A DNA stretch of 64,000 nt, taken from assembly GCF_041146795.1 (NCBI RefSeq), contig NC_135179.1, positions 12,576,047-12,640,046 of the forward strand, read 5' to 3'. The position numbers were made by a program, and so were the translations under genes. The notes below the pieces were generated by a model, which saw only the letters and a list, made by a program, of their open reading frames with translations, had not been told where the DNA came from and did no database searches. This document shows positions 45,911 through 63,700 of this stretch, in pieces. Position 1 is the first letter of the stretch; each line of letters begins with the position of its first letter. Source of the stretch: Maylandia zebra. Lineage: Eukaryota; Chordata; Actinopteri; Cichliformes; Cichlidae.

Positions 45911-46256
45911 CACTGCAAAAACTCAAAATCTTACCAAGTATATTTGTCTTATTTCAAGTCAAAATATCTAATCACACTTAAAATAAGCCATAATCAGCTA
46001 AAGAGTAACGTTTCAGTGAGATATAGGAACTTGTTTTTAGACAGTGCATCTTGGATATCTTGTTAAGTGAAAAACTCTTGAAAACATATTGTTTTGAGTC
46101 ATATCTCACACGAAACAAGCTTTTTTTGGCATTTCATAAACGTTTTAAGCTGCTGTGTTATTTGTAAAAGATGTATCATCTTGTTTCAAGAAATAGACCT
46201 AACTTGAATCAGGACATCAAATCTACTTTATTGAGAACTGCAGGTTAATATCATGC
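45911..46256. mobile_element. CACTA/EnSpm-like terminus
   Basis: The stretch starts CACTGCAAAAACTCAAAATC and runs on through TTACCAAGTATATTTGTC and TTATTTCAAGTCAAAATATC. This is the typical end of teleost EnSpm/CACTA elements. The preceding trinucleotide CTA (45908-45910) may be one half of a 3-bp target duplication. Subterminal words such as CTTGTTT and its inverse AAACAAG recur. The opposite terminus (ending TTTTTGCAGTG) was not found in the rest of the window. The transposase-like gene ends about 800 bp away and points toward this terminus. Confidence 0.7.
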
Positions 46257-46491
46257 CCAGGGATAGCTCAGTAGGTAAAGTGGTCGCCCCATGATCGGAA
46301 GGTCGGCGGTTCGAATCCACTTAACGGCTACCCTGAGGTACCCCTGAGCAAGGTACCGTCCCTACACACTGCTCCCCGGGCGCCTGCTTAGTGGGCTGCC
46401 CACTGCTTCACTGAGTGAATGGGTCAAATGCAGAGAAAAAACAAGTAATTTCCCCATGGGGATCAATAAAGTATCCATTATTATTATTAAC
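46257..46491 (+). mobile_element. tRNA-derived SINE inserted in the CACTA-like end
   Basis: Box A-like TAGCTCAGTAGGTAAAGTGG and a good box B GGTTCGAATCC are at a tRNA-like distance. A body follows with GAGTGAATGGGTCAAATGCAG and an ATT-repeat tail. Its position between the CACTA-like terminus and the transposase stop suggests it landed inside that element. Confidence 0.8.
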
Positions 46492-47758
46492 ATTGCATTA
46501 TTATGAGTCTTAGTATCTTAAGCACAGTGTATTTATTTTTCTTACATACCAGTCAAACCATATCAATGTGACATTGAAAAAGAGGCAAAACACTGAAATT
46601 GTTTCCCTCACTGAACAGATTGCGCCAAAAGTAAAATAAAAAGTAAATAGAACAATTTTTTTGCCAGTCTTTAAAAACCTTATTTCAGCCCACATATTCA
46701 CAAAAGACTCAAGAATAATGTTTGATGATGTCAGTTAGATCATACTTCACTGGAATGTACTTGCTGTTATTAAAGTTTACATAGTGGTATGCTGTATAAT
46801 CAACAAGATTTCCAGCATCCACAAAAATATTTGCCTGAGCTAGACAGGGAACTTCTACCTCATAAGCTAAATATTGATCATTCCACCCAACTGTAGAGAG
46901 AGGCTGGCATTCAAAACAATACACAGATGCATTTACAATATAGATGTTTTTAACAAGTGCAAACTCTGGAGCATCATTTATGACATCAGAAATAACCAAA
47001 GATTTTTCACATGAATGTATATTTCCATGTAGCATAATCCACTGTACAGAAACTACATGTTCAACTTGCTCAATGAAGTCTTTAATCTTGCCTTCTACAT
47101 AATGAACATTTTTCACCTCTTTGGCTGGACCCATGTCGACTTCACTTGAAAAAATGGGATGTTTCTCATGCACGTTCTGACTACATTCATAAAGTTGGTT
47201 GTGCTTCACAAGAGATTTACAAATATTCTTAAAACTACTTTTCAGAGCCCACTGCTTGAAGAAACAATGTTTTGACTCAAAACGCATACACATATGCCTC
47301 ACTGTAGGACCAAGAGCCTTAATCTGAGAAGGAAGATGCAGTAAATAATGCTGTTTAGGTATAATATTTTCATCTGGAAACAGTTGTTTGAAATGTTTTA
47401 AATGCTGCTCTATTAAAAGCTTCAATCTGGAGAGAGTTGAGACAGCAATAATAGGTGAAAACAGAATTTTTATGATCTCTAACATGTTACGTAGCATTTG
47501 TGTGTAATGATTTTCTCCAATTTTGTCCATAAGAAATGGAAGGATCTTCAACAAAACCAGCATCTGCCCAGCTGACTGTTTCAATTTATTGTCATTTGAT
47601 GACAGCGTACTGACAGATATGGGGCAAGGCTTATCCCTCACATCAACAGGAGAATAAGGGAAACACAAAATTGCACTATTGAATGAATCTAAGTTCATTT
47701 GCCCTGAAAGCACAAGATTCTTTAAAACACATTTGATTTCATATGGGGCAACGCCTTC

Positions 47759-48018
47759 TTTTTTTTTTTTTTTTTTTTTTGGCCTGTCCCGTTTGGCTCT
47801 TTTGCCATCAGAATTGTTGTCTAAAGGCAAAGAAAGATGCCCAACGGATTTACTTTACCAAACTGACCATCCCAGCCTTGCCGTAATGGTCCATTTGATT
47901 CACCTTTTATTGTTTATTTTATTTTCACTTACTGAATACGGGACAGACTTGACTGGGGGAAAGAAGGGGAGAAAGAAAGAGGGAAAGAGAAACAGCTGAG
48001 AAGAGGGACGGGGGAGAA
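47759..48018 (-). mobile_element. Retroposed insert (poly(A), 13-bp target duplication) within transposase exon 3
   Basis: The 260-bp insert is bounded by identical 13-mers GGGCAACGCCTTC at 47746-47758 and 48019-48031. On the minus strand it ends in 22 A's (47780 down to 47759). Target duplication of this length plus a poly(A) tail is the mark of LINE-driven retroposition. Its minus-strand start is pyrimidine-rich (CTTCTCCCCC), and an AATAAA-like cluster lies in its middle. The source RNA was not recognised; the frame SDGKRAKRDRP before the A-run gave no family. It brings in a stop and splits the transposase frame inside EGVA. Confidence 0.85.
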
Positions 48019-50640
48019 GGGCAACGCCTTCAAGAATAACATGCATGATGTCTTGTGGGGTTTGATTGATTATATCAACGTGAGGAGATTCTGTTAACTT
48101 GCTTCTCCTGTTTATACCATACGTTATTTTTAGTTTGTCTTTCAGAAAGTCCGTACTTGCCTTCTCAATGTCATTACATTGCCTGTTATGACTGGCCATG
48201 GTCCTTTTAACAAAAAAATCTTCATTAAATTTTTCCTGCATGTCTTCAAAGTGGCATTCGCAGTGCCTGCATTTACTGTAGGCAAAACCCACTCCTTCCT
48301 TAAATCCAGCCACTTCATGCTGAGCTAGAGTGTCTCCACACACAGATATGAGTGCCCCATGAATTGTCCTCTCACCACTTGCAGTGACAACTTGGACACC
48401 ATCACACAGCTCAATTAAGTCACGGTTAATCCTCTCAAATATCTCATCTATACCACAACGGGAAAGATCTTTTGATTTTACCATGGCAAGCAGACGAATA
48501 GCAGGAAGTCTTGATCTGTACTTAGGGCTGATGTTACCTAAGGTGTAATAAATCAATAACAGCTTGTTCTTGTTTGCCCGAGATCCAAGAGGATTGCATA
48601 GTTCAATTTCATCTGTATATAAAATCAACTGTAATGCTGTAGGGACTTTAATAAACAGTGGGTGCCACTTAAAAATGTCTCCATCAATGAAATCATGAAG
48701 AAAGCCATCCTTGCATGGCTTTGGCCTCTCATCAATCATTGCAAGCATTCTTGGATGTGATAGCAGCTGCTCCAAACTTTTCACCAACGGTATGTAATGA
48801 AAACAATGGTCTTTAATGGCAAGAACTCTGGAGTCTCCACGCTTCGAATAACAGACTGTTTGTTTTGTGACAATAATCTCTGGTTCAACTGGTTTTAACA
48901 GTTCTTTGATGGTCTTGTCCTGCAAATGGGTGGAAGCAATTTGAGTGAAAGGGTCAACAAACTGGTCAAATACCCCCACTGCATCACTCTTTAGTTGATC
49001 CAGGTCCCCAGAATGTCTCTCAATCATGTCACTCATTTGTTGTTTTAGGTGCTCCAATAATACGGCCTGATATTGCTGGATTCCACTCACGATGTGGTTA
49101 ACAGCTCTCTGTGGAAGAGGAAAAAACAAAGGAAAATCCTTAATTACAAAATTCATATGAGAACACAGTCAACATGCAAACTCACAGAGACACAATTTTT
49201 GAAAAATGAAACCTTCAGTTACATAAAGTTAGTGAGATGCAATGAGCAAAATAAGTTACCCCCACCACCCAATTTTTTTTGTAAAGAATAATATTGTCTT
49301 ATGCAACGTTAAAACCTTGTTTTCACTTAATTATAATGCATTTTGAGGAATCGGATCATAGGTGGAAATGCAAATTGAAAATTTGTGTTGTGTGTATTAT
49401 GTTGTCTCTATTCTTAGCTCATGCTAAGGAAATATAGTGATAGGCAGATTTTGGATGCAACATACATGTCTATTTCCATATATAGTGGGGGAGTGAGATC
49501 TGAGTGGTCACCCATGAATTACATGGAGACACATTCGAATGTCAGGTGTTTCACTCACATACCTATAGCTGTCCATTTATGATCAGATCATTCAAGATGC
49601 CAGGTCTGAACAGTGCCCAAGTTATAGCTTGAGCACTGTTAAGCATAAGTTAAGCATATTGCTTTTAGGTTCTCTAACAATGAAATACAATTCAATGGAA
49701 AATTAATGGCATAAATTACCTGTGTCAGTCGATGGGTTTCCTTGGCTTGAAGAAGAAATGCAGTTGCATGTTTATAAATGTCAAGATTCAGGTGACCCTC
49801 TCCATCTTCTTGAAATCCACTCTGAAACAGAATAACAAAAACATATCTATTAAAACAGAAATAAATAATTGCATTGATAGGTAGCAATCACCAAACAATA
49901 TTGCATTCATTAGTTAGCTAGATTCATGCCCATAAGGTACAAGGTAGATGTATTTTTACTGACTGATGTCTTTAATTTGAGCTTTTAAAATGACAACTAA
50001 AATGACAAACAAAGCAGTACTTGATAATAGATTAATAAGACTAGCAAAGCACATGGAGAGTTCAGTACAGTATAGTTTAAATTCCTTGATCATGCCTGAT
50101 CACCCCCAAAATTGAATTACTTGTTTATTGGCCCATTTGTGACATTTCCTGAAAATTTAAAATCTGTCCATAACTTTGAGTTATTTTGCTAACAGTCAGA
50201 CAAATGCCACCAAAAACATAACCTCCTGAGTTACTAAGAAAAAAGGTAAAGAAAAGAAAAACAAAAGATAGTTTTAGAAAAAAAAGTAACAGTTAATGTT
50301 GTCAGTAGTCTTACTGTTACTTCAGAAATGCAAATAGTTATTTATAACTGATTACTCATTTAAAAAATATACAAAATAACTTACTGATTGGTTTGTATGA
50401 AAGTAATTAGTTATGTCAGTTATTTACTGTTGGACAAGTTACTGACAATTTGAAATATGTTATATTTAGTAATTTCACCTTTAAAAAAAATGACCAATAC
50501 TGACAATAAAAGTAATATTGACTTTAATGCTCTTATTAATGTGAAGATGAGTATTTTTTTGTGTGTTTAAATTTTTTTTTGACAGTAACTCTGAACAAAT
50601 CATGTAATTTTGGTTTGCTTTGCCTAATAGTCATTCTCTT

Positions 50641-51215
50641 AGGCTACGTCCACACGTACCCGGGTATTTTTGAAAACGCAGATTTTTCTATGCGTTTGCA
50701 CCTTTCGTCCACACGTAAACGGCGTTTTTGGTCACTGAAAACGGAGATTTTTAAAAACTCCGGCCAGGGTGGATATTTTCTAAAACTCCGTTTTTGCATT
50801 TACGTGTGGACATAAAAATGGAGAAAACGCAGTGTCAAAGGTGTGCTCATTTTTTGATGTCACACTGTGCGCCACGTTATTATTTCGGTGAAATGAATTT
50901 CTACAATACTGTTACTTCTACTCAATGCACTGTTTAAATGCTTACATATACACACACAGTTACTGTCCCTCCACACATACCACTTGCTTCTGCTTCTATG
51001 CCCCAGCTTTGTTTACTTTTTCCCACCGAGGCTTCTAGACTTCTGATTGGCCAACATTGCTGCACGGTTAGGAATATATCGCCACCTGTTGCTTTGGCAT
51101 GTTCCTAGCAGTGTTTTCCTTCATTTCTGCCTTTACGTGTGGACGGGATTATTTTTTAAAACGAAAACGGAAAATCTCCGTTTTCAAAAATACCCGTGTA
51201 CGTGTGGACATGGCT
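50641..51215. mobile_element. Non-autonomous inverted-repeat element in transposase intron 1
   Basis: The left end GGCTACGTCCACACGTAC and the right end GTACGTGTGGACATGGCT are inverted repeats that continue inward (GGGTATTTTTGAAAACG and its inverse). The total imperfect inverted repeat is about 50 bp. Inside are more CGTTTTT/AAAACG and TCCACACGT words. No coding frame is present. Flanks TTA and TAA do not form a clean direct duplication. Confidence 0.75.
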
Positions 51216-51967
51216 TAAATTGACCTTGAACACATATGTAAACATGATAGCGACCTATTCAGTTAGCTGACTGGCTTTTACCAGCTGATTTCAACACGTA
51301 TTTCAAAAATATATCAACTTTTTTTAAACTAATAGGACTTTCTGCAAAGTTTGGATGCATTCACCAGAGCGAACGAACGGATGACTGAAAAAAAAAAAAC
51401 AGTCTGACAAGACTGCAGCTTTGCGTTTCTGCCACAGCTCTCATTTACGTTTCAGGTGAGTTACTTAATTTAGCGAAACAACTAGTTCGACACTCATCAC
51501 TGTTAAAATAAAAGTACAACATGAGTCTGTCAAAAACAACACATTTAATGGACGTACTTGGATCAGCCAAATTAAATGCTAACATTATGTTACAGCTTCT
51601 GCAGCTCGTTTCTCTGGCTTTTGTTAAAATAACTTACCGTTAGTGCGGGGATGCTTGAGCCCTCGTCAGTTACTGAAGAACTGGCGTTAGTTTGGTTGAT
51701 TGGGGCCGTCCTTTCACCTGCTCCAGGTAAACCGTGGCGGGTTGATCCATCCTCCTCATCCGCTTCCACTCCGAGAAGGTGACGCGCGTGTGTCCGCTTT
51801 ACGTGATAGTAGAAAGAGTTATATACTCTGTACTCACTCGGACAGCCATCAATTCCACACACCACGCGAAAGTCAGGGCTGCGGCTGTGCATGGTATTAA
51901 TGTGACTCAAAAGTTGTCTCAGACTCAATGCTACAAACACGTAGCATATAAAGCAACGCCAAGTCAT

Positions 51968-52490
51968 GTTGGAAGCTAGTATGTTTCATTCGGTAGCGCG
52001 GGCTGCAGTTGTGCCGTAAAATAACTCGTTACCATGGTTAAACGCGCCTGCTAAATTGTCGTAGATGTGGGGGATAAAGTAAAAAAAATTTTATTAACCT
52101 ATAATAATTAACGCTATTTTGCAATGCACAAAGACAGTTGTTTGGTTTAAAAACCAATCAATCATCCTTTTAGGATTTTTGGGCCAAAGAAATGTCAGGC
52201 AAATTGAAGACGAACTTCGTTTCTGGCTGTCGTGAATGATCTGGTGGACATCTTAAGTTCATGTAGACACGTGCCTGCCACTACTGTCCCAGAGTTCTTT
52301 GCATTCGCGTTTCATTGGAAGTAAGTTAAAATGTATTATACAGTGCTCATTTTTTGTACATATTACACTCCTTTCGAAAGTTCTAAATGTTTTGGTGTGT
52401 TTATATTGTGTAACGTTGCAGCCGAACAGTGACTGGACGAGGCAAGCTAACGCCAAAAAAGCTAACTAGTGTGCTAAGTAGGCTAACAGC
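51968..52490. promoter_or_regulatory. Shared divergent promoter region of the transposase-like and SAM genes
   Basis: The 523 bp between the two start codons (minus ATG at 51967, plus ATG at 52491) must hold the promoters of both genes. It contains several GCTAAC/GTTAGC-like words (for example 52446-52490) and has more CpG at both edges than the surroundings. No TATA box at a convincing distance was found on either strand. Function is inferred from gene layout. Confidence 0.5.
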
Positions 52491-53581
52491 ATGGAAGGAC
52501 TGGATGAGGTCACAGTGTCGGTTTTAAAGGGTAATGTATGCAAATTTATTTTTAAACAGATTAAATGGACTTATGTTTTACATAGGTGTATGAACACGGA
52601 AGTGTGCAAATTACATTATTTTATAAATAATGTCGTTGATGATGTTTAAGTAATTTTTTTACCTTCCATTTCATGTGATCATTTCCTCATTTTAGGAACA
52701 TTTGTAGTTATTTGTTTTACTTATGCAAGTGTATTTATTCATCCTTAGAGGTGGATAATTCTCAGTAACATTTACCAATTTACATTTAATTGATTAACTT
52801 TTGGGGAAAAAAAGTACTTAAGAGTAGTTTTACTGCACTATAGTTTACACTTTTACTTGAGTAGATTTGTAAAGAAGTAACTGTACTCCACTACATTCCA
52901 AAAAGCTCAGTTCCTTTAATAATACCTAAAGCTGGATAAAAATTCAGTGTCCAATATATAAAAAATGAGGTCAACAATGCTACTAAAGTAGTGTGACAAT
53001 TTGTCTGTAAACAGAATTTTTCCACAGCAGTTAGCCCAGCAGATATATATTTTTTAATTTAATTAGGTAATTTTTTTGAGGAGAATACTTTTTTCTTCTA
53101 CTTCATTTTATTTTGAAGTAACACTACTTTTACTTAAGTACAGTCTTTTTAGCATGTTGATCATTAGCTCTATACAAAAAACAGTAGCAGACAATGAGGT
53201 ATCCACATTTCTATACTAAACTAGTTAGCAATAGCAACACAATTTTAATGAAGTGTCAACTTTCATAGTCTCATCTCTCATGCAGTTTCCTTTGTAGGGC
53301 ATAATTTCATCTTGCTATGTTTTTCTTCCAATGTGTTCATAGCTGCAAACATCAGCGAGGGAATGATGGGCACCCTGTCTCGTGAAGACTTGCAGGATCT
53401 TTTCCCAGGCCCAGAGAACTTTTTACGGAGAAAAGCTGTCTGGCGTGCCTGTCAGGATGTACTGGAGGTCAGTTTCTCAGTCACTCACCACCACTTAAAA
53501 TTGGCATCGTCGTGTTTTTGTCCGATTACAACTAGTTTAACCGCGGGCAGAGTTGAATGGCTCTTCACTATTCCCCCCTCT

Positions 53582-53642
<61 letters not shown>

Positions 53643-54808
53643 GCGTTTTGCTTTTATTCATTATTATTTATTTTATAGGAATCTGGCCAAGATGACTCAA
53701 AATCTTCAACCAGCTCCTCCATTAATGAGTCACCCAAGCAACAGACATCCACTACTGTAAATGCAACTCCTGCAAAATGCACAAGCCCTGAAAAGGTTGT
53801 GAAGTTATTCTATCCAGAATATGTATTGCACACTGACACTGAGCTTGAGCAAGTCCGCCAACAATACTTTGAGTTGTCAAAGAAAGGTGAAGAGCGCAGC
53901 TGCAAAATGTCAAAGGAGCTCAGATGTCGGCTCATCCGAAACACCATGACTAGTATGATTGCAATCCTGAGGGCAAAAGGGGATGGAGAATCGCATAGAT
54001 ACCCATCAAAACCAGAAATTACAGCAATGGCAAAGAGAATAGTGCAGTACTACCCTATGCTACAGGACCAAGGCATCAAGAATACATGGGTAAGTGAAAT
54101 GCATCCACTTCAATACCAAAGTGTTTCATGTTGGACATTTTAGTAGTGGTTGGAAAAATGTATTAAATGTCCTATACAGGTTACTGTGTACACACAGCTA
54201 AACAAAAGACTGCAAAATGTGAGATCCCCACAAAAAGCCACTCCAGATGGGAGACATTCAAAGAGGTAAGGCTGCAACTAATTAATTTTAATTTTAACTA
54301 TGATAATTCTGTTATTCATTTTCCTCATTAATTGATAAGTTGTTTAGTCAGTACGATGTTTGAAAGTTGTGAAAGTTTTTCCCCAAAAGTCTTCTTTTGT
54401 CCACAATCTGACAATTTTAATTTCAACGATAGAGGACAAACAAAAAAGCTAAAATCATGTTTGGGCATTTTATTAAGGAAAGAAAGAAGTGATCCAATGT
54501 GATCAATCAAGTATTTGGTGACCTGCCTTTAGTTTCCTCACCTGTTTTAGCATGAAAGGAAGAAGCACTTTGTGTTACACTTTGTATATTTGAAAATGGC
54601 TGTACAATAAAGATATGAATTGATTGAGTTTATAGTTGATAACTAATTGATTAACTGACTAATCTTCGCAGCTCTGCCAAGAGGCGACGTCTTGATCAGC
54701 CAAGTGACGTAGAAGAAATGGATTCAAGTGACTCAACAATCATTCTGGATCTGTCCACAGAAGGGAGGAGCAGCCCAGAGTCGGCCAGTAAAACAAGTGA
54801 GTTAGAAG
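52491..54808 (+). CDS. SAM-like and SAMD3-like domain protein, five visible exons (3' end not found)
   Basis: Exons: 52491-52530, 53343-53467, 53679-54089, 54180-54265 and 54672-54808, with AG acceptors and GT donors; phases agree and give 266 codons. The start MEGLDEVTVSVLK is joined to AANISEGMMGTLSREDLQDL and FPGPENFLRRKAVW, a SAM-like helical domain. A Ser/Thr-rich linker follows. Residues from about 85 on (KVVKLFYPEYVL, RLIRNTMTSMIAIL, EITAMAKRIVQYYPMLQD, WVTVYTQLNKRLQNVRSP) resemble the region after the SAM domain in SAMD3-like fish proteins. The end has a basic patch SAKRRRLD, a possible nuclear signal, then an acidic Ser-rich tail. The last exon ends in a donor with one base over, so at least one more exon is needed; none was recognised to 64000. 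It lies head to head with the transposase-like gene. Partner function is inferred. Confidence 0.7.
53583..53635. repeat. (CA)n microsatellite
   Basis: About 26 CA units lie in the intron between the second and third SAM-gene exons. They give the apparent His-Thr runs in open frames here. Confidence 0.95.
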
Positions 54809-55843
54809 GTGAGTTTCAACTTTACATTTACAAACTGTGTGGTCATCATAAAAAAATAAAACAAATATACCTGCATGTTGAGTCAAGATGGCAGTCCTGA
54901 GATGACAGAAGTAAAAGGCTTTAAAATGGGCATCAGAAAATGATAACTACATCACATTTTTCCTGTTTTATCATCAGTTTGTTAACATTTCTGTGGAAAT
55001 TAATGTTAATAAAGTATTGGTATTAATAAAAGCCAGTATATTATAAATTTAAAGAGCTGGGTACTGTGGTGTGTTTATAGTATAAGTCTGTGCAACATCA
55101 CTGTCTCTAACCACTCAGTATATCATGTAAAGTAATGTTTTTAAAAAACAATGTGCCTCACTAGAGGCTTTTTTGCCTATAGGCAAAACTTTGTGCAGCG
55201 CTGAGCAGAGGCGGAGGCAGACATTTGATACACCCAGGGCTTAGAGTTTTGTTCAAAAAAGAATGACTTCATATAGGGAAAATATATATATATCACATCT
55301 GCAGGACACCTTAAACTAGTTTTTTAATTAAGCAGCAAGGCAGAACAAAGTCGGGGCTGTATCAAGACACGAGGACTAAACCCCAATTCAACCAGACCAA
55401 GAACTGATCTGGAATTAAAACAGGACTACAACAGTTCAAAATCAGGACTACTTAGGACTTAACCAAGACAGAACCAGAATCAGAACTAGATGATAGTAGC
55501 ACTAAAAATAATCATAGACCTGCACTACACTTATTTTTTATTTCTACCAAAGTACATTATTTAGATTCAGAAAAGTTTATATAATTATTTAGCCTTGTTG
55601 TGCAAACAAGCCTGCAGAACTTAATAATTGTAGAATTTGAAAAATAAAAAACTTAAAAAGAAACACTAGGTACGATGAGTACCTATGATACGGTGATACT
55701 TTTGGTAAACGACCATTTGACTAACATGTGTGTCTCACCTGCTCTTGTTCCATCTCTGTTCTGTCGTCATTCTCTCTCTCCCTCTCTGCTTCTCTCTCCC
55801 TCTTTGTGCTGACAATCAAGCCAAACACCAACATCATCAAATA
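54809..55843. other. No gene recognised downstream of the SAM gene
   Basis: The SAM gene needs a further exon, but no stretch here gives an acceptor plus conserved-looking frame. Several AAGAACTGATC/AGGACTA-like repeated words occur at 55370-55500, perhaps an old repeat. Confidence 0.4.
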
Positions 55844-55845
55844 TA

Positions 55846-56457
55846 CAGTTGAAACCAGATATTTACATACTCTTCAGATAAAAACACAAATACTTTTTTT
55901 TTAATTGTAACATCAAATCAGAATAAATGTTTATTTTTTTTAGGTTGATAAATATAAAAAACATAGTTTCTCTCTTTACTCTTAAAGTTAACAAATATCT
56001 GTATTTCTTAATTGTAAATGGCACCAAATTGTATTCAAAATTGAGCCACACTTATGGAGCTCCACAATTCTTTTCCTGGTGTTTTGGTTGACATCTCTTG
56101 ATTTTCCCACGTCAAAGAAACAGGCTCTGTGTTTTGCCTTATATGCATCCACAGGTGTGCCACCAATTTACTCACATGGACTCTACTAACCTATCAGAAG
56201 CTTCTTCAGCTCAGAATGGAACCGTCTGAGTTTTCTTATTAATTAACAATAAACTTAGTGTACATGTACTCCTAAATTTGATGAAAGTGATAAAAATAGA
56301 CAGCTGTCTCTTTATTCTGACATTTAACTAATTCAAAAGATATTTCAATATTTATTTATCCAAAACAAAACAAGTTTACTCTAAATTGATGTTGTACAGT
56401 AAAAAAAAATGTTCTTGTGTTTTCCACAAAGTGTATGTAAGTATCTGGTTTAAACTG
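55846..56457. mobile_element. Non-autonomous Tc1-like element, 612 bp
   Basis: The left end CAGTTGAAACCAGATATTTA and the right end (reverse complement CAGTTTAAACCAGATACTTA) are inverted repeats of about 30 bp that continue into ACACAAATACTTTTTTT-like text. The left flank is TA, the Tc1 target; the right flank is TG, a likely mutation. The interior has no transposase frame. Confidence 0.85.
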
Positions 56458-56459
56458 TG

Positions 56460-59400
56460 AATATACTGCTGTGTATTGAAGTTCCTCTTGTTTTGCATAA
56501 AAATATACTAAACAACATACAAAGCATAATATATAAAATACTACCAGAGTTTTTTCTTTGAAAGAAGCTCCTTATGTCCATTCTTGTATATCAGTGCATT
56601 ACTGAAACCGATTTATATAGCTGTGGAGGGTAACAACTGAAAATAGGAAATAAACACACATGTAAGCTAAGACTCCAAAGAAACAGCATTGTTGTTGTTC
56701 GGCTTTTCATTTCGCCATTTGTTGATTCACTCGAAGAGCAAGTAACGTAATATGGGTCAAGTGATCAGTTTGATATCAATCTTTTGTGATTCACCGTCAT
56801 ATTTACATTATTTGTACAGTACGAATGATTTGCTTTGCTACCTGGTCAAACTTCAGTTCTCCTCTGTCTGCCTGGTTGCGTTTCTCCAACAGCGTACTGG
56901 CAGGCAGCAGCTCCCCCCACCCCCTCATGTCTGAGCTCAGATCATACCAATATTAAGGGGAATTTACGCACAGTCGTAAATTCCCACAGCGTGCACTATG
57001 TGCTTCGAATATTGTGTGTAGTTTTTGTTTTATACAGTTGTCAGCCAGGCATGTAACTATGAAAAGAAATTACACTCCAAAAGACCCCGGACTTCTGAAA
57101 AAACAACTCTGGCTTAAGCCCAGTAAGCCGCCCCCCTCCTCCCGCTCCGCCTCTGACGCTGAGAGGTGTCAAGTCAAAAAAGCTCTATCAATACTGAAGT
57201 TTTGTTTGATGACAGATTCATGGTGAGGTTTTAGTTGTATTATACATTAACAGTGGCATTATTTCCCAGATGTGATTACCCTTACACTCACATGTTTCAC
57301 CAGCACAGTGAAAAAGCTCTCTCGCCAAAGGTGCACACAAGCAGAAAGGGAAAGAAAATCGCTGCATCAAACAATCCTGCTCCAAATGGCAGATTTTGGC
57401 TTTGTGTTTCTGTGTAGGAAGTAAAACAGACCTGAAAGACTCACTATTTGCATTATCTTGCGTAATCTCTGAGTAATTGGAAAGGAATTAATATTAATCC
57501 TTTCCTGTGGCACGGTGCCCCATAAAGCTGTTGTGACTAAGGCAGAACACAGAGACAATGCAGAGAACATGCCAAGATCCTCTTCAAGTAAAACATGCAG
57601 CATCACTGGATGGGGTGGCTGAACTGTGCTTTGCAAGGGTTTGACTAAAGAGCCCTTGAATGCGTGGGCTTCATAGGGGGGACGTAATACAGAAGAACCT
57701 CACACCAACCTTTAAATCCTGACTTGGTTGGGTTACATTCACACAACTGCCTGCTTCACAGCAGCTCAGGAAACAGTCGGAGTAAGTGTGAGTTTACACA
57801 TGACAGGGAAAGTGGTACTTGTTCACAGTGAAATGTAGACTATAAAGTTTTACTTACCACATATAGTAGAGCCAATTTAATGAACATCGCACTCCTGGGA
57901 CCCTTTAGCACTTTACAGTGTAGTTTGCAGAGGGAATTTGCTGAATGCAGAAATGTGTGGAGGAAATCAGAGGTTGTCAGTGTCACAAGCCCGAAGGCTC
58001 AGCACATGATGATTATTTTTTTCTTTTCTGATGCGTTCTGTTAAAATGAGCTTTTCACACACTTTATTTTAACCTTGCCAATTAGCGCTTCATACTTCAA
58101 TGTACACAGATGAGGAATTTAAAAGTGTTTTTGTCAGTAATTAGAAATTCTCCTATAAACATCAAAAATCAGCAGTTAGTGGACATTCAGTCTGGGCACT
58201 CATCTCGTCTTGACCATAGACAACATATATTACAGTAACATCAACCACTGGTGAGTGAAGTCACCTTGTGAAGTCTCAAGGAGAGAGTTTTCTTCTTCAT
58301 CATTTTGGTGTTAAGAAACTGGATGTGATGACGAGCGTGGTGGAACTAACTGAGGAACTAAGGGACACTGCATGCTGCACGTTACAATGTACTTTAGGCT
58401 TACCAGAACACAAAGCCTGCTTTATTGTCCTTTTTTTTTTTTTTTTTTACTCTAATTGGGGCTGTAATTTACACAATAAATATCACGCTATATTTACACC
58501 TTATCTGAAATTATAAACCATAAATGTATAGTTCTATAGAAAAGGATGTCTTTTTGAACCCAGAGGAGTTGCTTTGGGAACCACTAATAACATTTTGGTG
58601 CTTCTGGTATAGCAAGCAGAAAGCCCAACCACAACTTCCTGTTGTTTATATAAATAATGTAAATTAAATCTGCAAGCAGCAATGATAAGGCATTTGCACC
58701 TTGGCACACTCAAGCATGCTGCAGTGTGGCTATCTAGGATTGTGATTGGCTGTTGCACAAACTAGCACTTCCTATGCACACGAGGTGTTTTTTTTTCCTC
58801 GAGCAAACGCACAGAATAATATGCCATGTTGCTGCATACCATGTGTGGAACCCACAATTAAAATTTCAACATGATGTGTATTACCACTTGCTGATTTCCT
58901 GTTGCTACTAGATGGCGCTATAACATTGACTAAATATTCGCAATTTAGCATTGGCAAGGTTTACTATCATTAATTGCAATGTAATAGAGGGTGATATAGA
59001 ACTATTCTGGAATAATCATGTTTGTGTCCCAAAAAATATGTATTTATCACCAGTCCTGATGCATATGCTAACTATAACCCAAAAAAGACAGTTAATTTGC
59101 ACAAAGAACCAGAACTTCTCACAGTCAGTGCTCACACCCTATCAACTTTTTTATATGCTAAGAAGACAGGCTTTGACAAACAGGTAAAAATAGAATATTG
59201 GAAGGGAAATCTAACACAAATTCACTTATATTAACGGCTTTTTTTCAGTAAAAAAACAAAGTTGTAAAAGAATATTCAGTGGTTTTGTATTAATAGAATG
59301 TATGTCTGTAAAGTGTTATCCCTTTCCTACAGATTCTGTACATCTTGTTTTGAAAATATCTGTTTATAGAGATTATAGAGATGTAACACCAACTATATCA

Positions 59401-62564: not shown

Positions 62565-63700
62565 TGTTTGTGTTCTCAGTTTCACCCCTGTGCCATGTCA
62601 CACAGCATCCGCCCACTATACATACTGAAACTGCTGACAGGTGAGGTGAATAAGATCGCTAATTTCCATAACAATGCAATATTTTGCTCCGAAATGTTTG
62701 GACCCAGCATTTATATGGATGGCACTCTGACACATACCACCCACCTGAATATTGCTGCAGATCAATCACACCTCCATGGCTACAGCACTCACAATATGTA
62801 CTCCATCACCCTGCAAAAAACAAAACAAAAAAATCCCCCAAAAAGCATCCAGAATGGCTGGAGTAACATGACAAAGAGGCCAAAATGCCAGTCAAGTAAC
62901 CATTTTAGCAAGTATTTTCCTCAAACGTTACAGATCATCATCTGCTCAGTTAAGAATCAGAGGTTTTGGATCAGTTTCATTTGCTTTGGTGTTCATGAAA
63001 TGAACAACAGATGCACTAGAGAGGCAACAATAAGACAACCCCCAAAATAGGAAATCTACAGGTGAAGGCCACTGACAATTTTTTCCACCTCATCTTTTCT
63101 CTTTTGCATTTGGTTAGGGACAATTCACTGCTGGTAACATAGGAATACATGAACCCTACAGAGGTTGCACATGGCATACATGAAGATTTGCTGTGACTCA
63201 TAGACTCAAGAACACAGAGGAGATTCCAGGAGACAGGTCGTTGCTCTAGGAGAGCTTGTCAGGGTTGTAGAAGGTCCTTAACCCATCAGCAGTTCCGGTA
63301 TTTGCTCCTTTGTGCAAGGAGTAACAGGATGAGCACTGTGAGAATCCTGTTGTGAAGGTGTTTAACCAAACAATCAGAAACAGACTTCATAAAGGTGGCC
63401 TGAGGGCCCAACATCCTTTAGTGGGCCCTGTTCTCACTGAGTGGTACTAGTTGTGATTTGCCATAGAAAACCAGAATCCACCACTGGTGCTCTGTGCTTT
63501 TCACAGATGAGAGCAGGTTCGCCCTGAGCACATGCAACAGATTTGGAGAACATGAAGCTGCCTGTAACATCTCTGAACATGGATGGTTTGCTGGTAGGTC
63601 ACTGATAGTCTGCGGAGTTATATCTATTGAGGGACACACACCTGTGGAGGCTAGGCAACGGTATGTTGAAAAGTTTTTTTCAGTATAGATATCCAGCATG
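62565..63700 (+). mobile_element. Degenerate Tc1/mariner-like transposase relic
   Basis: At 63494-63688 the + frame reads LFTDESRFALS and later RSLIVCGVISIEGHTPVEAR. This matches the FSDESRF...VMVWGGIS block around the first catalytic Asp of Tc1-type enzymes. Upstream, 62690-63045 contains fragments such as FGPSIYMDGTLTHTTHLNIA and NRCTREATIRQPP that I know as repeated in fish genomes, but the order of fragments is not that of a single intact enzyme. Stops and frame changes are frequent. It may be two overlapping relics. Confidence 0.45.

What the first reader, a model, noticed from the sequence alone, without database searches (positions are those of the whole stretch)
45911..54808. Divergent transposase-like and SAM-domain gene pair, possibly the cargo of one large CACTA-type element
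Seen: a CACTGCAAAAA terminus at 45911; a minus-strand gene with two C2H2 fingers, DIMH and RFESKH motifs ending 800 bp from it; and a + strand SAM/SAMD3-like gene starting 523 bp from the transposase start. Known: CACTA elements often carry a second protein besides the DDE transposase, and Tnp2-type enzymes show DxMH-like and RFExKH-like blocks. Inferred: the SAM protein is the accessory factor (for example oligomerising on terminal repeats) and the 523 bp drives both. A two-gene CACTA-like system with a SAM partner is not one I can name. The far terminus is missing here, so the pair could also be neighbouring host genes.
Basis: partly seen in the sequence, partly recalled or inferred. Interest (0 to 1): 0.8.

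Follow-up and report, generated by a model that had tools for sequence, protein, structure and literature searches.

The report
Two-gene RAG1-fold jumping element in fish
This is a damaged copy of a fish jumping gene that carries its own cutting enzyme, folded like the antibody-gene recombinase RAG1, together with a second head-to-head protein gene, and a complete two-gene copy of a related element with both ends was found elsewhere in the same genome.

The parts
45911..55174 (.). Right-truncated copy of the two-gene element (as far as it is shared with other copies)
   Evidence: Left edge: similarity to two other copies begins at CACTGC with different flanks. Right edge: similarity to the C6 copy stops at 55174, where C6 goes on with further exons of the SAM-like gene.
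45911..45921 (+). Terminal inverted repeat, left arm CACTGCAAAAA
   Evidence: the same 11 bp, inverted, close the complete C3 element
45911..46259 (.). Subterminal region with 7 copies of a degenerate 12-mer CTTRTTTYRAGT in both orientations
   Evidence: 7 against 0.37 expected from the window average (68 in 64 kb, up to 2 mismatches); the densest 349 bp of the window (motif read off this same end)
46260..46488 (+). tRNA-derived SINE-like insertion, absent from the two other copies
   Evidence: absent from copies A and B; tRNA-like start read by eye
46709..49108 (-). Transposase exon 3, catalytic part and C-terminal domain, interrupted by an insertion
   Evidence: D codon 48611-48613, D codon 48332-48334, first C of CxxC 48269-48271, H of DIMH 48041-48043, E of RFESKH 47276-47278
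47758..48019 (-). Poly-A retro-insertion that splits the transposase frame; 13-bp duplication GGGCAACGCCTTC on both sides
   Evidence: absent from copies A and B
49720..49821 (-). Transposase exon 2
   Evidence: tblastn with P0090
50642..51216 (.). hAT-MITE-like insertion in transposase intron 1 (edges read by eye)
   Evidence: inverted repeat CTACGTCCACACGTA.. seen; a related copy lies in intron 1 of the SAM-like gene of the C3 element
51638..51967 (-). Transposase exon 1, two C2H2-type fingers
51968..52490 (.). 523-bp head-to-head intergenic region (360 bp in the C3 element)
52491..52530 (+). SAM-like gene exon 1 (40 nt, same length in the C3 element)
53343..53467 (+). SAM-like gene exon 2
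   Evidence: matches P0209
53679..54089 (+). SAM-like gene exon 3
54180..54265 (+). SAM-like gene exon 4
54672..54808 (+). SAM-like gene exon 5, last one left in this copy; the C-terminal half is lost

Best explanation
45911-55174 is a decayed, right-truncated copy of a two-gene cut-and-paste DNA transposon of the CMC (CACTA/EnSpm-Mirage-Chapaev) kind. One gene encodes a D/D/E transposase with N-terminal C2H2 fingers, a RAG1-like catalytic body and a probable C-terminal BAH domain. The other, head-to-head with it, encodes a partner of about 554 residues with an N-terminal SAM-like helical module. Shown: terminal inverted repeats, 2-bp target duplications, clustered subterminal repeats, dispersed copies, a complete two-gene sister element, mirrored phylogenies. 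Inferred: the transposase pairs and cuts the CACTG ends; the partner does the job of TnpA in Spm, coating the subterminal repeats, oligomerising through its SAM-like part and bringing the ends together; the short gap is a shared promoter; the BAH domain steers insertion or silencing through nucleosomes. The confidence is for the two-gene transposon; the partner's role alone stands near 0.5.
Against: No complete element of the window's own subfamily was found: copies A and B stop before the SAM-like gene in the 20 kb read of each, and the C6 copy has the 3' part of the SAM-like gene with no transposase match in 20 kb. In the sister subfamily, of 3 transposase copies at 98-100% 2 have the partner, and of 4 near-complete partner copies 2 have the transposase, so solo copies exist; whether any of them has two intact ends was not checked. 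Pfam hits of the window pieces are below curated cut-offs, and the catalytic piece scores better with Plavaka (6e-4) than with Transposase_21 (0.07), so the place within the CMC-like transposases is open. The clades for the shuffle test were cut after seeing the trees. In C3 the 12-mer is dense at the right end only (11 of 25 in the last 707 bp; 3 in the first 500 bp).
Confidence: 0.93

Rival explanations
1. Two neighbouring host genes (an exapted transposase and a SAMD3-like gene) that happen to lie beside a short non-autonomous CACTG element.
For: Short CACTG elements of 306-425 bp occur in this genome, fish records list the partner as an ordinary uncharacterised or SAMD3-like gene, and other cichlids carry nearly identical partner stretches (Simochromis 99% over 64% of the query, Oreochromis 97% over 34%).
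Against: Copies A and B show that the transposase lies inside the same repeat unit as the end; the complete C3 element and the mirrored trees tie the partner to it. The window partner is closer to one of a mormyrid (91.7%) than to those of Iconisemion (82.6%), Epinephelus (76.5%), Nerophis (74.6%) or Gadus (67.2%), all nearer to cichlids by descent (recalled), which is not host-gene behaviour.
Confidence: 0.03
2. The element is two-gene, but the partner is a captured cargo or a regulator (for example against silencing) and not part of the end-joining machinery.
For: No Pfam family for the partner P0209 and no convincing sequence relative among solved structures; transposons do carry accessory enzymes of that kind, such as TET/JBP dioxygenases (PMC12730594, passages).
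Against: Partner kept with several transposase clades in mirrored descent, head-to-head layout conserved over a large divergence, repeat-rich ends like those bound by TnpA of Spm (recalled).
Confidence: 0.35
3. The partner is a RAG2-like cofactor that activates the RAG1-fold transposase directly rather than binding the repeats.
For: RAG1 fold; RAG transposons are likewise two-gene (recalled).
Against: No Pfam kelch or PHD match in the partner or its 57 aligned relatives at E up to 0.1.
Confidence: 0.15

Closest known systems
En/Spm of maize (CACTA) with TnpA and TnpD
   Same: CAC..GTG ends, subterminal 12-mer arrays (recalled), two proteins; that tnpA and tnpD are both required for transposition in tobacco is the title of Masson 1991, seen only in the reference list of PMC4158355. 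DUF4218/Transposase_21-type transposase (below cut-offs here).
   Different: Partner shows no Pfam relation to a known family and is a separate head-to-head gene; target duplication 2 bp instead of 3; probable BAH domain.
Fish EnSpm families of Repbase (e.g. the EnSpm-N elements of zebrafish)
   Same: Short non-autonomous relatives in fish with inverted ends; EnSpm-N6_DR is 346 bp (PMC3485254, passages).
   Different: Repbase itself could not be searched here; whether its autonomous fish entries already list the partner is not known to me.
RAG1/RAG2 and ProtoRAG
   Same: RAG1 fold of the transposase, two-gene element.
   Different: Partner has no Pfam RAG2 signature; CACTG ends and 2-bp duplication rather than RSS-like ends and 5 bp (recalled).
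Plavaka, ESTA and fungal EnSpm of the CMCT clade
   Same: EnSpm-like transposases; CMCT has CA..TG ends in most cases and 2-5-bp duplications; ESTA has TA duplications (PMC12730594, passages). The catalytic window piece scores best with the Plavaka profile (6e-4, below cut-off).
   Different: The elements of that paper are fungal with TET/JBP cargo; a tree with the present family was not made.

Membership tests
CACTA/EnSpm (CMC clade) | CAC...GTG terminal inverted repeats | tested here: met
   C3 element 11/11 bp; short relatives
CACTA/EnSpm (CMC clade) | 3-bp target duplication (EnSpm proper) | tested here: not met
   2 bp in 6 of the 7 short copies with both ends intact, 1 bp in the seventh (10 rows, 3 with a degraded end set aside); TG in C3. 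The wider CMCT clade allows 2-5 bp (PMC12730594).
CACTA/EnSpm (CMC clade) | D/D/E with C(2)C between second D and E | tested here: met
   D 47/48 (one gap), D 47/48, C 47/48 and 48/48, E 48/48
CACTA/EnSpm (CMC clade) | H(3-4)H motif between second D and E | tested here: inconclusive
   one invariant H in DIMH (48/48); a second H at the right spacing was not established
CACTA/EnSpm (CMC clade) | Transposase_21/DUF4218 profile match | tested here: inconclusive
   present but below curated cut-offs for the window pieces, with Plavaka scoring better than Transposase_21; DUF4218 41, Transposase_21 15, Plavaka 11 of 48 relatives at E up to 0.1
CACTA/EnSpm (CMC clade) | clustered subterminal repeats | tested here: met
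   window left end and a 425-bp relative; right end of C3, weaker at its left end
Spm-type two-protein system | second protein encoded within the element | tested here: met
   C3 element; in the window copy itself the right end is missing
Spm-type two-protein system | second protein binds the subterminal repeats and is needed for transposition | not testable with these tools
   -
RAG transposon family | RAG2-like kelch/PHD partner | tested here: inconclusive
   Pfam at E up to 0.1: no family for P0209 and no kelch or PHD among the 5 families matched by any of 58 aligned partners (best: Med31, 14 members, E 0.008)
RAG transposon family | RAG1-fold transposase | tested here: met
   predicted model
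SAM domain proteins | Pfam SAM match above cut-off | tested here: not met
   SAM_2 E 0.14, 12.8 bits against 20.5; none. The predicted model has four N-terminal helices within 6-50, not searched on their own.
BAH domain | BAH fold | tested here: met

The most novel reading that the evidence does not exclude
A lineage of vertebrate two-component transposons in which a RAG1-fold enzyme with its own chromatin-reading BAH domain works with an obligate, self-assembling SAM-like synapsis protein that coats repeat-rich ends. The pair passes repeatedly and together between fish orders, so that many teleost 'SAMD3-like' genes are transposon proteins.
Probability: 0.4. Interest if true: 0.8.

Novelty: new variant of a known kind. 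Interest (0 to 1): 0.62.

Why it matters
It gives animals a two-protein CACTA-like system comparable to maize Spm but with a partner that no search here could link to a known family, on a transposase with the fold of the vertebrate antigen-receptor recombinase. That makes testable how RAG1-fold enzymes recruit partners and how repeat-rich ends are synapsed. It would also explain a set of uncharacterised or SAMD3-like teleost genes as transposon proteins, and marks a candidate for transfer between distant fishes: the window partner is 91.7% identical over 252 residues to a mormyrid protein.

Tried and rejected
Far terminus in the window and 40 kb beyond: none. First places of the bare 11-mer: unrelated sequences, so the 11-mer alone is weak evidence. 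Other copies for the window's own right end: A and B are right-truncated; C6 ends near the partner's C-terminus in sequence whose nature I did not examine. Partner against PDB by fold: Foldseek gave no match at E 0.001 or better, and the rows shown by Foldseek and VIA name no SAM, RAG2 or clear DNA-binding relative; such absence excludes nothing. By sequence: two weak hits, best E 0.19. Seven 73-bp fragments of the sister partner exon at other places were not explained. Searches were sent with miscounted coordinates and did not complete; the corrected ones are and, answered, 140/141. Papers: searches listed, judged by titles and abstract starts, no paper describing a SAM or SAMD3 partner or a BAH domain in a CACTA element; several lists were capped, and subscription journals and Repbase are not covered.

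Rows dropped: trees used 38 of the 120 listed transposases (210 found) and 62 partners out of those listed (322 found, 120 listed), chosen because a species name was shown; not every named one was used. Alignments for folding used 58 and 48 relatives. The C3 transposase and partner were typed against 9 and 12 queries only.
Full report
What is there. The window is part of contig C13 of a 962-Mb fish genome. The genome is probably Maylandia zebra: contig C6 is 45,268,537 bases long, the same length as the contig that carries a Maylandia zebra protein (P0029). CACTGCAAAAA stands at 45911. A minus-strand gene runs from ATG 51967 (two C2H2-type fingers in exon 1) through exon 2 (49821-49720) to exon 3 (49108-46709), ending 798 bp from the terminus. 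A plus-strand gene starts at 52491, 523 bp away, with five exons up to 54808. The exons have open frames except that transposase exon 3 is split by a poly-A insertion at 47758-48019 with a 13-bp duplication.

It is a transposon end. A 35-base form of the terminus occurs 99 times in the genome with up to 3 mismatches, and its reversed control not once. Many hits are + and - pairs close together: short non-autonomous relatives, most of those compared about 89% like the window end over 143 bp. Of ten such copies, 306-425 bp long, seven have both ends intact and six of these seven show a 2-bp target duplication (TA three times, TT twice, AG once). Of the 29 other loci compared, two match the window end at 99% over 349 bp. 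The DNA there shows two further large copies, A on C5 and B on C1, 96.7-99.4% identical to the window in their aligned blocks. In both, similarity starts at CACTGC and the flanks differ. So the transposase lies inside the repeat unit that begins at 45911. The SINE-like piece at 46260-46488 and the insert at 47758-48019 are missing from A and B. B's long transposase exon has one stop within 724 codons.

The partner belongs to it. Neither A nor B reaches the SAM-like gene in the 20 kb read of each: A shares sequence to about window 50991, B to 51693. A search of the genome with partner exon 3 gave five places. On C6 a 97% copy runs from window 53995 to 55174 and then goes on with the C-terminal exons that the window lacks, so the window copy is cut off at about 55174. 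On C3 a diverged copy (69% over about 154 of the 411 bases) turned out to have a transposase gene head-to-head with it. The DNA on both sides completed the element: CACTGCAAAAA at C3:63951442, TTTTTGCAGTG ending at C3:63940236, 11,207 bp, 11 of 11 bp inverted, a 2-bp TG duplication. The transposase stop lies 595 bp inside the left end, the partner stop 922 bp inside the right end, the gap between the two ATGs is 360 bp, and exon 1 of the partner is 40 nt in both elements. The four matched transposase stretches hold no stop. Three of the six partner stretches matched with P0258 hold one stop each, all in parts that do not match the protein, that is read-through into introns.

Further copies. 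With the C3 transposase exon, three places match at 98-100%: C3, C16, C2. With the C3 partner exon, four near-complete places match at 96-100%: C3, C4, C2, C1. At C2 both lie in the same order and orientation, 15.3 kb apart instead of 3.9 kb; no transposase was seen in the 7.8 kb next to the C2 partner, so something lies between. So, as far as these lists show, 2 of 3 transposase copies and 2 of 4 partner copies are paired; the rest are solo.

Descent. The partner has relatives in many fishes (87 hits; 322 with a profile, 120 listed). The transposase has relatives in fishes and also in soft coral, hydrozoan, amphioxus and molluscs; an unbroken frame matching the window's over the whole query is on record (P0088, 724 residues). 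Trees of 39 transposase and 63 partner rows show matching clades: eight transposase clades can be assigned to partner clades so that 19 genus labels agree, against 13.1 +/- 1.4 in shuffles, reached in 1 of 5000. The clades were cut after the trees were seen, so this number is indicative. An unplanned check came from C3: it was found by the partner exon alone, its partner is nearest P0258 (clade S4) and its transposase nearest P0111 (clade T4), the two clades paired by the test. In Solea senegalensis the two proteins are listed on a contig of the same length, 29,262 bp. The window partner is 91.7% identical over 252 residues to a protein of Paramormyrops, a mormyrid, but 82.6% to Iconisemion, 76.5% to Epinephelus and 67.2% to Gadus; other cichlids carry nearly identical stretches besides other subfamilies at 47-53% to P0209. 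The transposase is 84% identical to that of Myxocyprinus, a sucker, and 60% to the one listed for Archocentrus, a cichlid. This suggests transfer between distant fishes, but paralogous subfamilies exist and no DNA dating was done.

Partner. The full-length relative P0209 has 554 residues: helices within 6-50, a helical block at about 109-207, a low-confidence linker and a well-predicted C-terminal part. The name SAM rests on a label carried by a few database relatives, a resemblance seen by eye and a sub-threshold Pfam hit.

How it most likely works. The window end carries a 12-mer cluster: 7 copies in 349 bp against 0.37 expected, and 10, arranged symmetrically, in a 425-bp relative. In the C3 element 11 of 25 copies lie in the last 707 bp, but only 3 in the first 500. 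By analogy with Spm, where TnpA binds such repeats and TnpD cuts (recalled; that both are required is a title cited by PMC4158355), I infer that the partner binds and bridges the ends and the RAG1-fold enzyme cuts at CACTG and inserts at 2-bp staggered sites. The layout and ends are shown; the partner's role is inference, at about 0.5.

Verdict. This is a broken member of a two-gene CMC-type transposon lineage, best graded a new variant of a known kind. Fish EnSpm families are in Repbase, which could not be searched, so the partner may already be listed there.

Noticed in passing
window 47758-48019: Poly-A retro-insertion with 13-bp target duplication, absent from two other copies; splits the transposase frame.
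   Followed up: partly
window 46260-46488: tRNA-derived SINE-like insertion, absent from two other copies.
   Followed up: partly
window 50642-51216; C3 element, partner intron 1: hAT-MITE-like elements in introns of both element families; shared sequence of copy A with the window, and of C4 with C3, breaks off inside such a MITE, perhaps by recombination between MITEs.
   Followed up: partly
C3:48277213-48277637 and others: Short non-autonomous elements with CACTG ends, many exactly 425 bp long.
   Followed up: partly
G000:C17:22965906, 22969588, 22973270: The terminus recurs at exactly 3,682-bp steps, which looks like a tandem array of an element.
   Followed up: no
C25:1309012, C22:49727418, C22:39195150, C17:24007658, C15:32187254, C3:70432, C22:27123295: Seven 72-73-bp, 97-99% fragments of the sister partner exon query (positions 285-357), all with the same limits in the query; unexplained.
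   Followed up: no
window 55850-56460 and 63050-63690: Tc1-like element pieces, recognised by eye only.
   Followed up: no
P0090 residues 720-852: Probable BAH domain at the C-terminus of a RAG1-fold transposase.
   Followed up: partly
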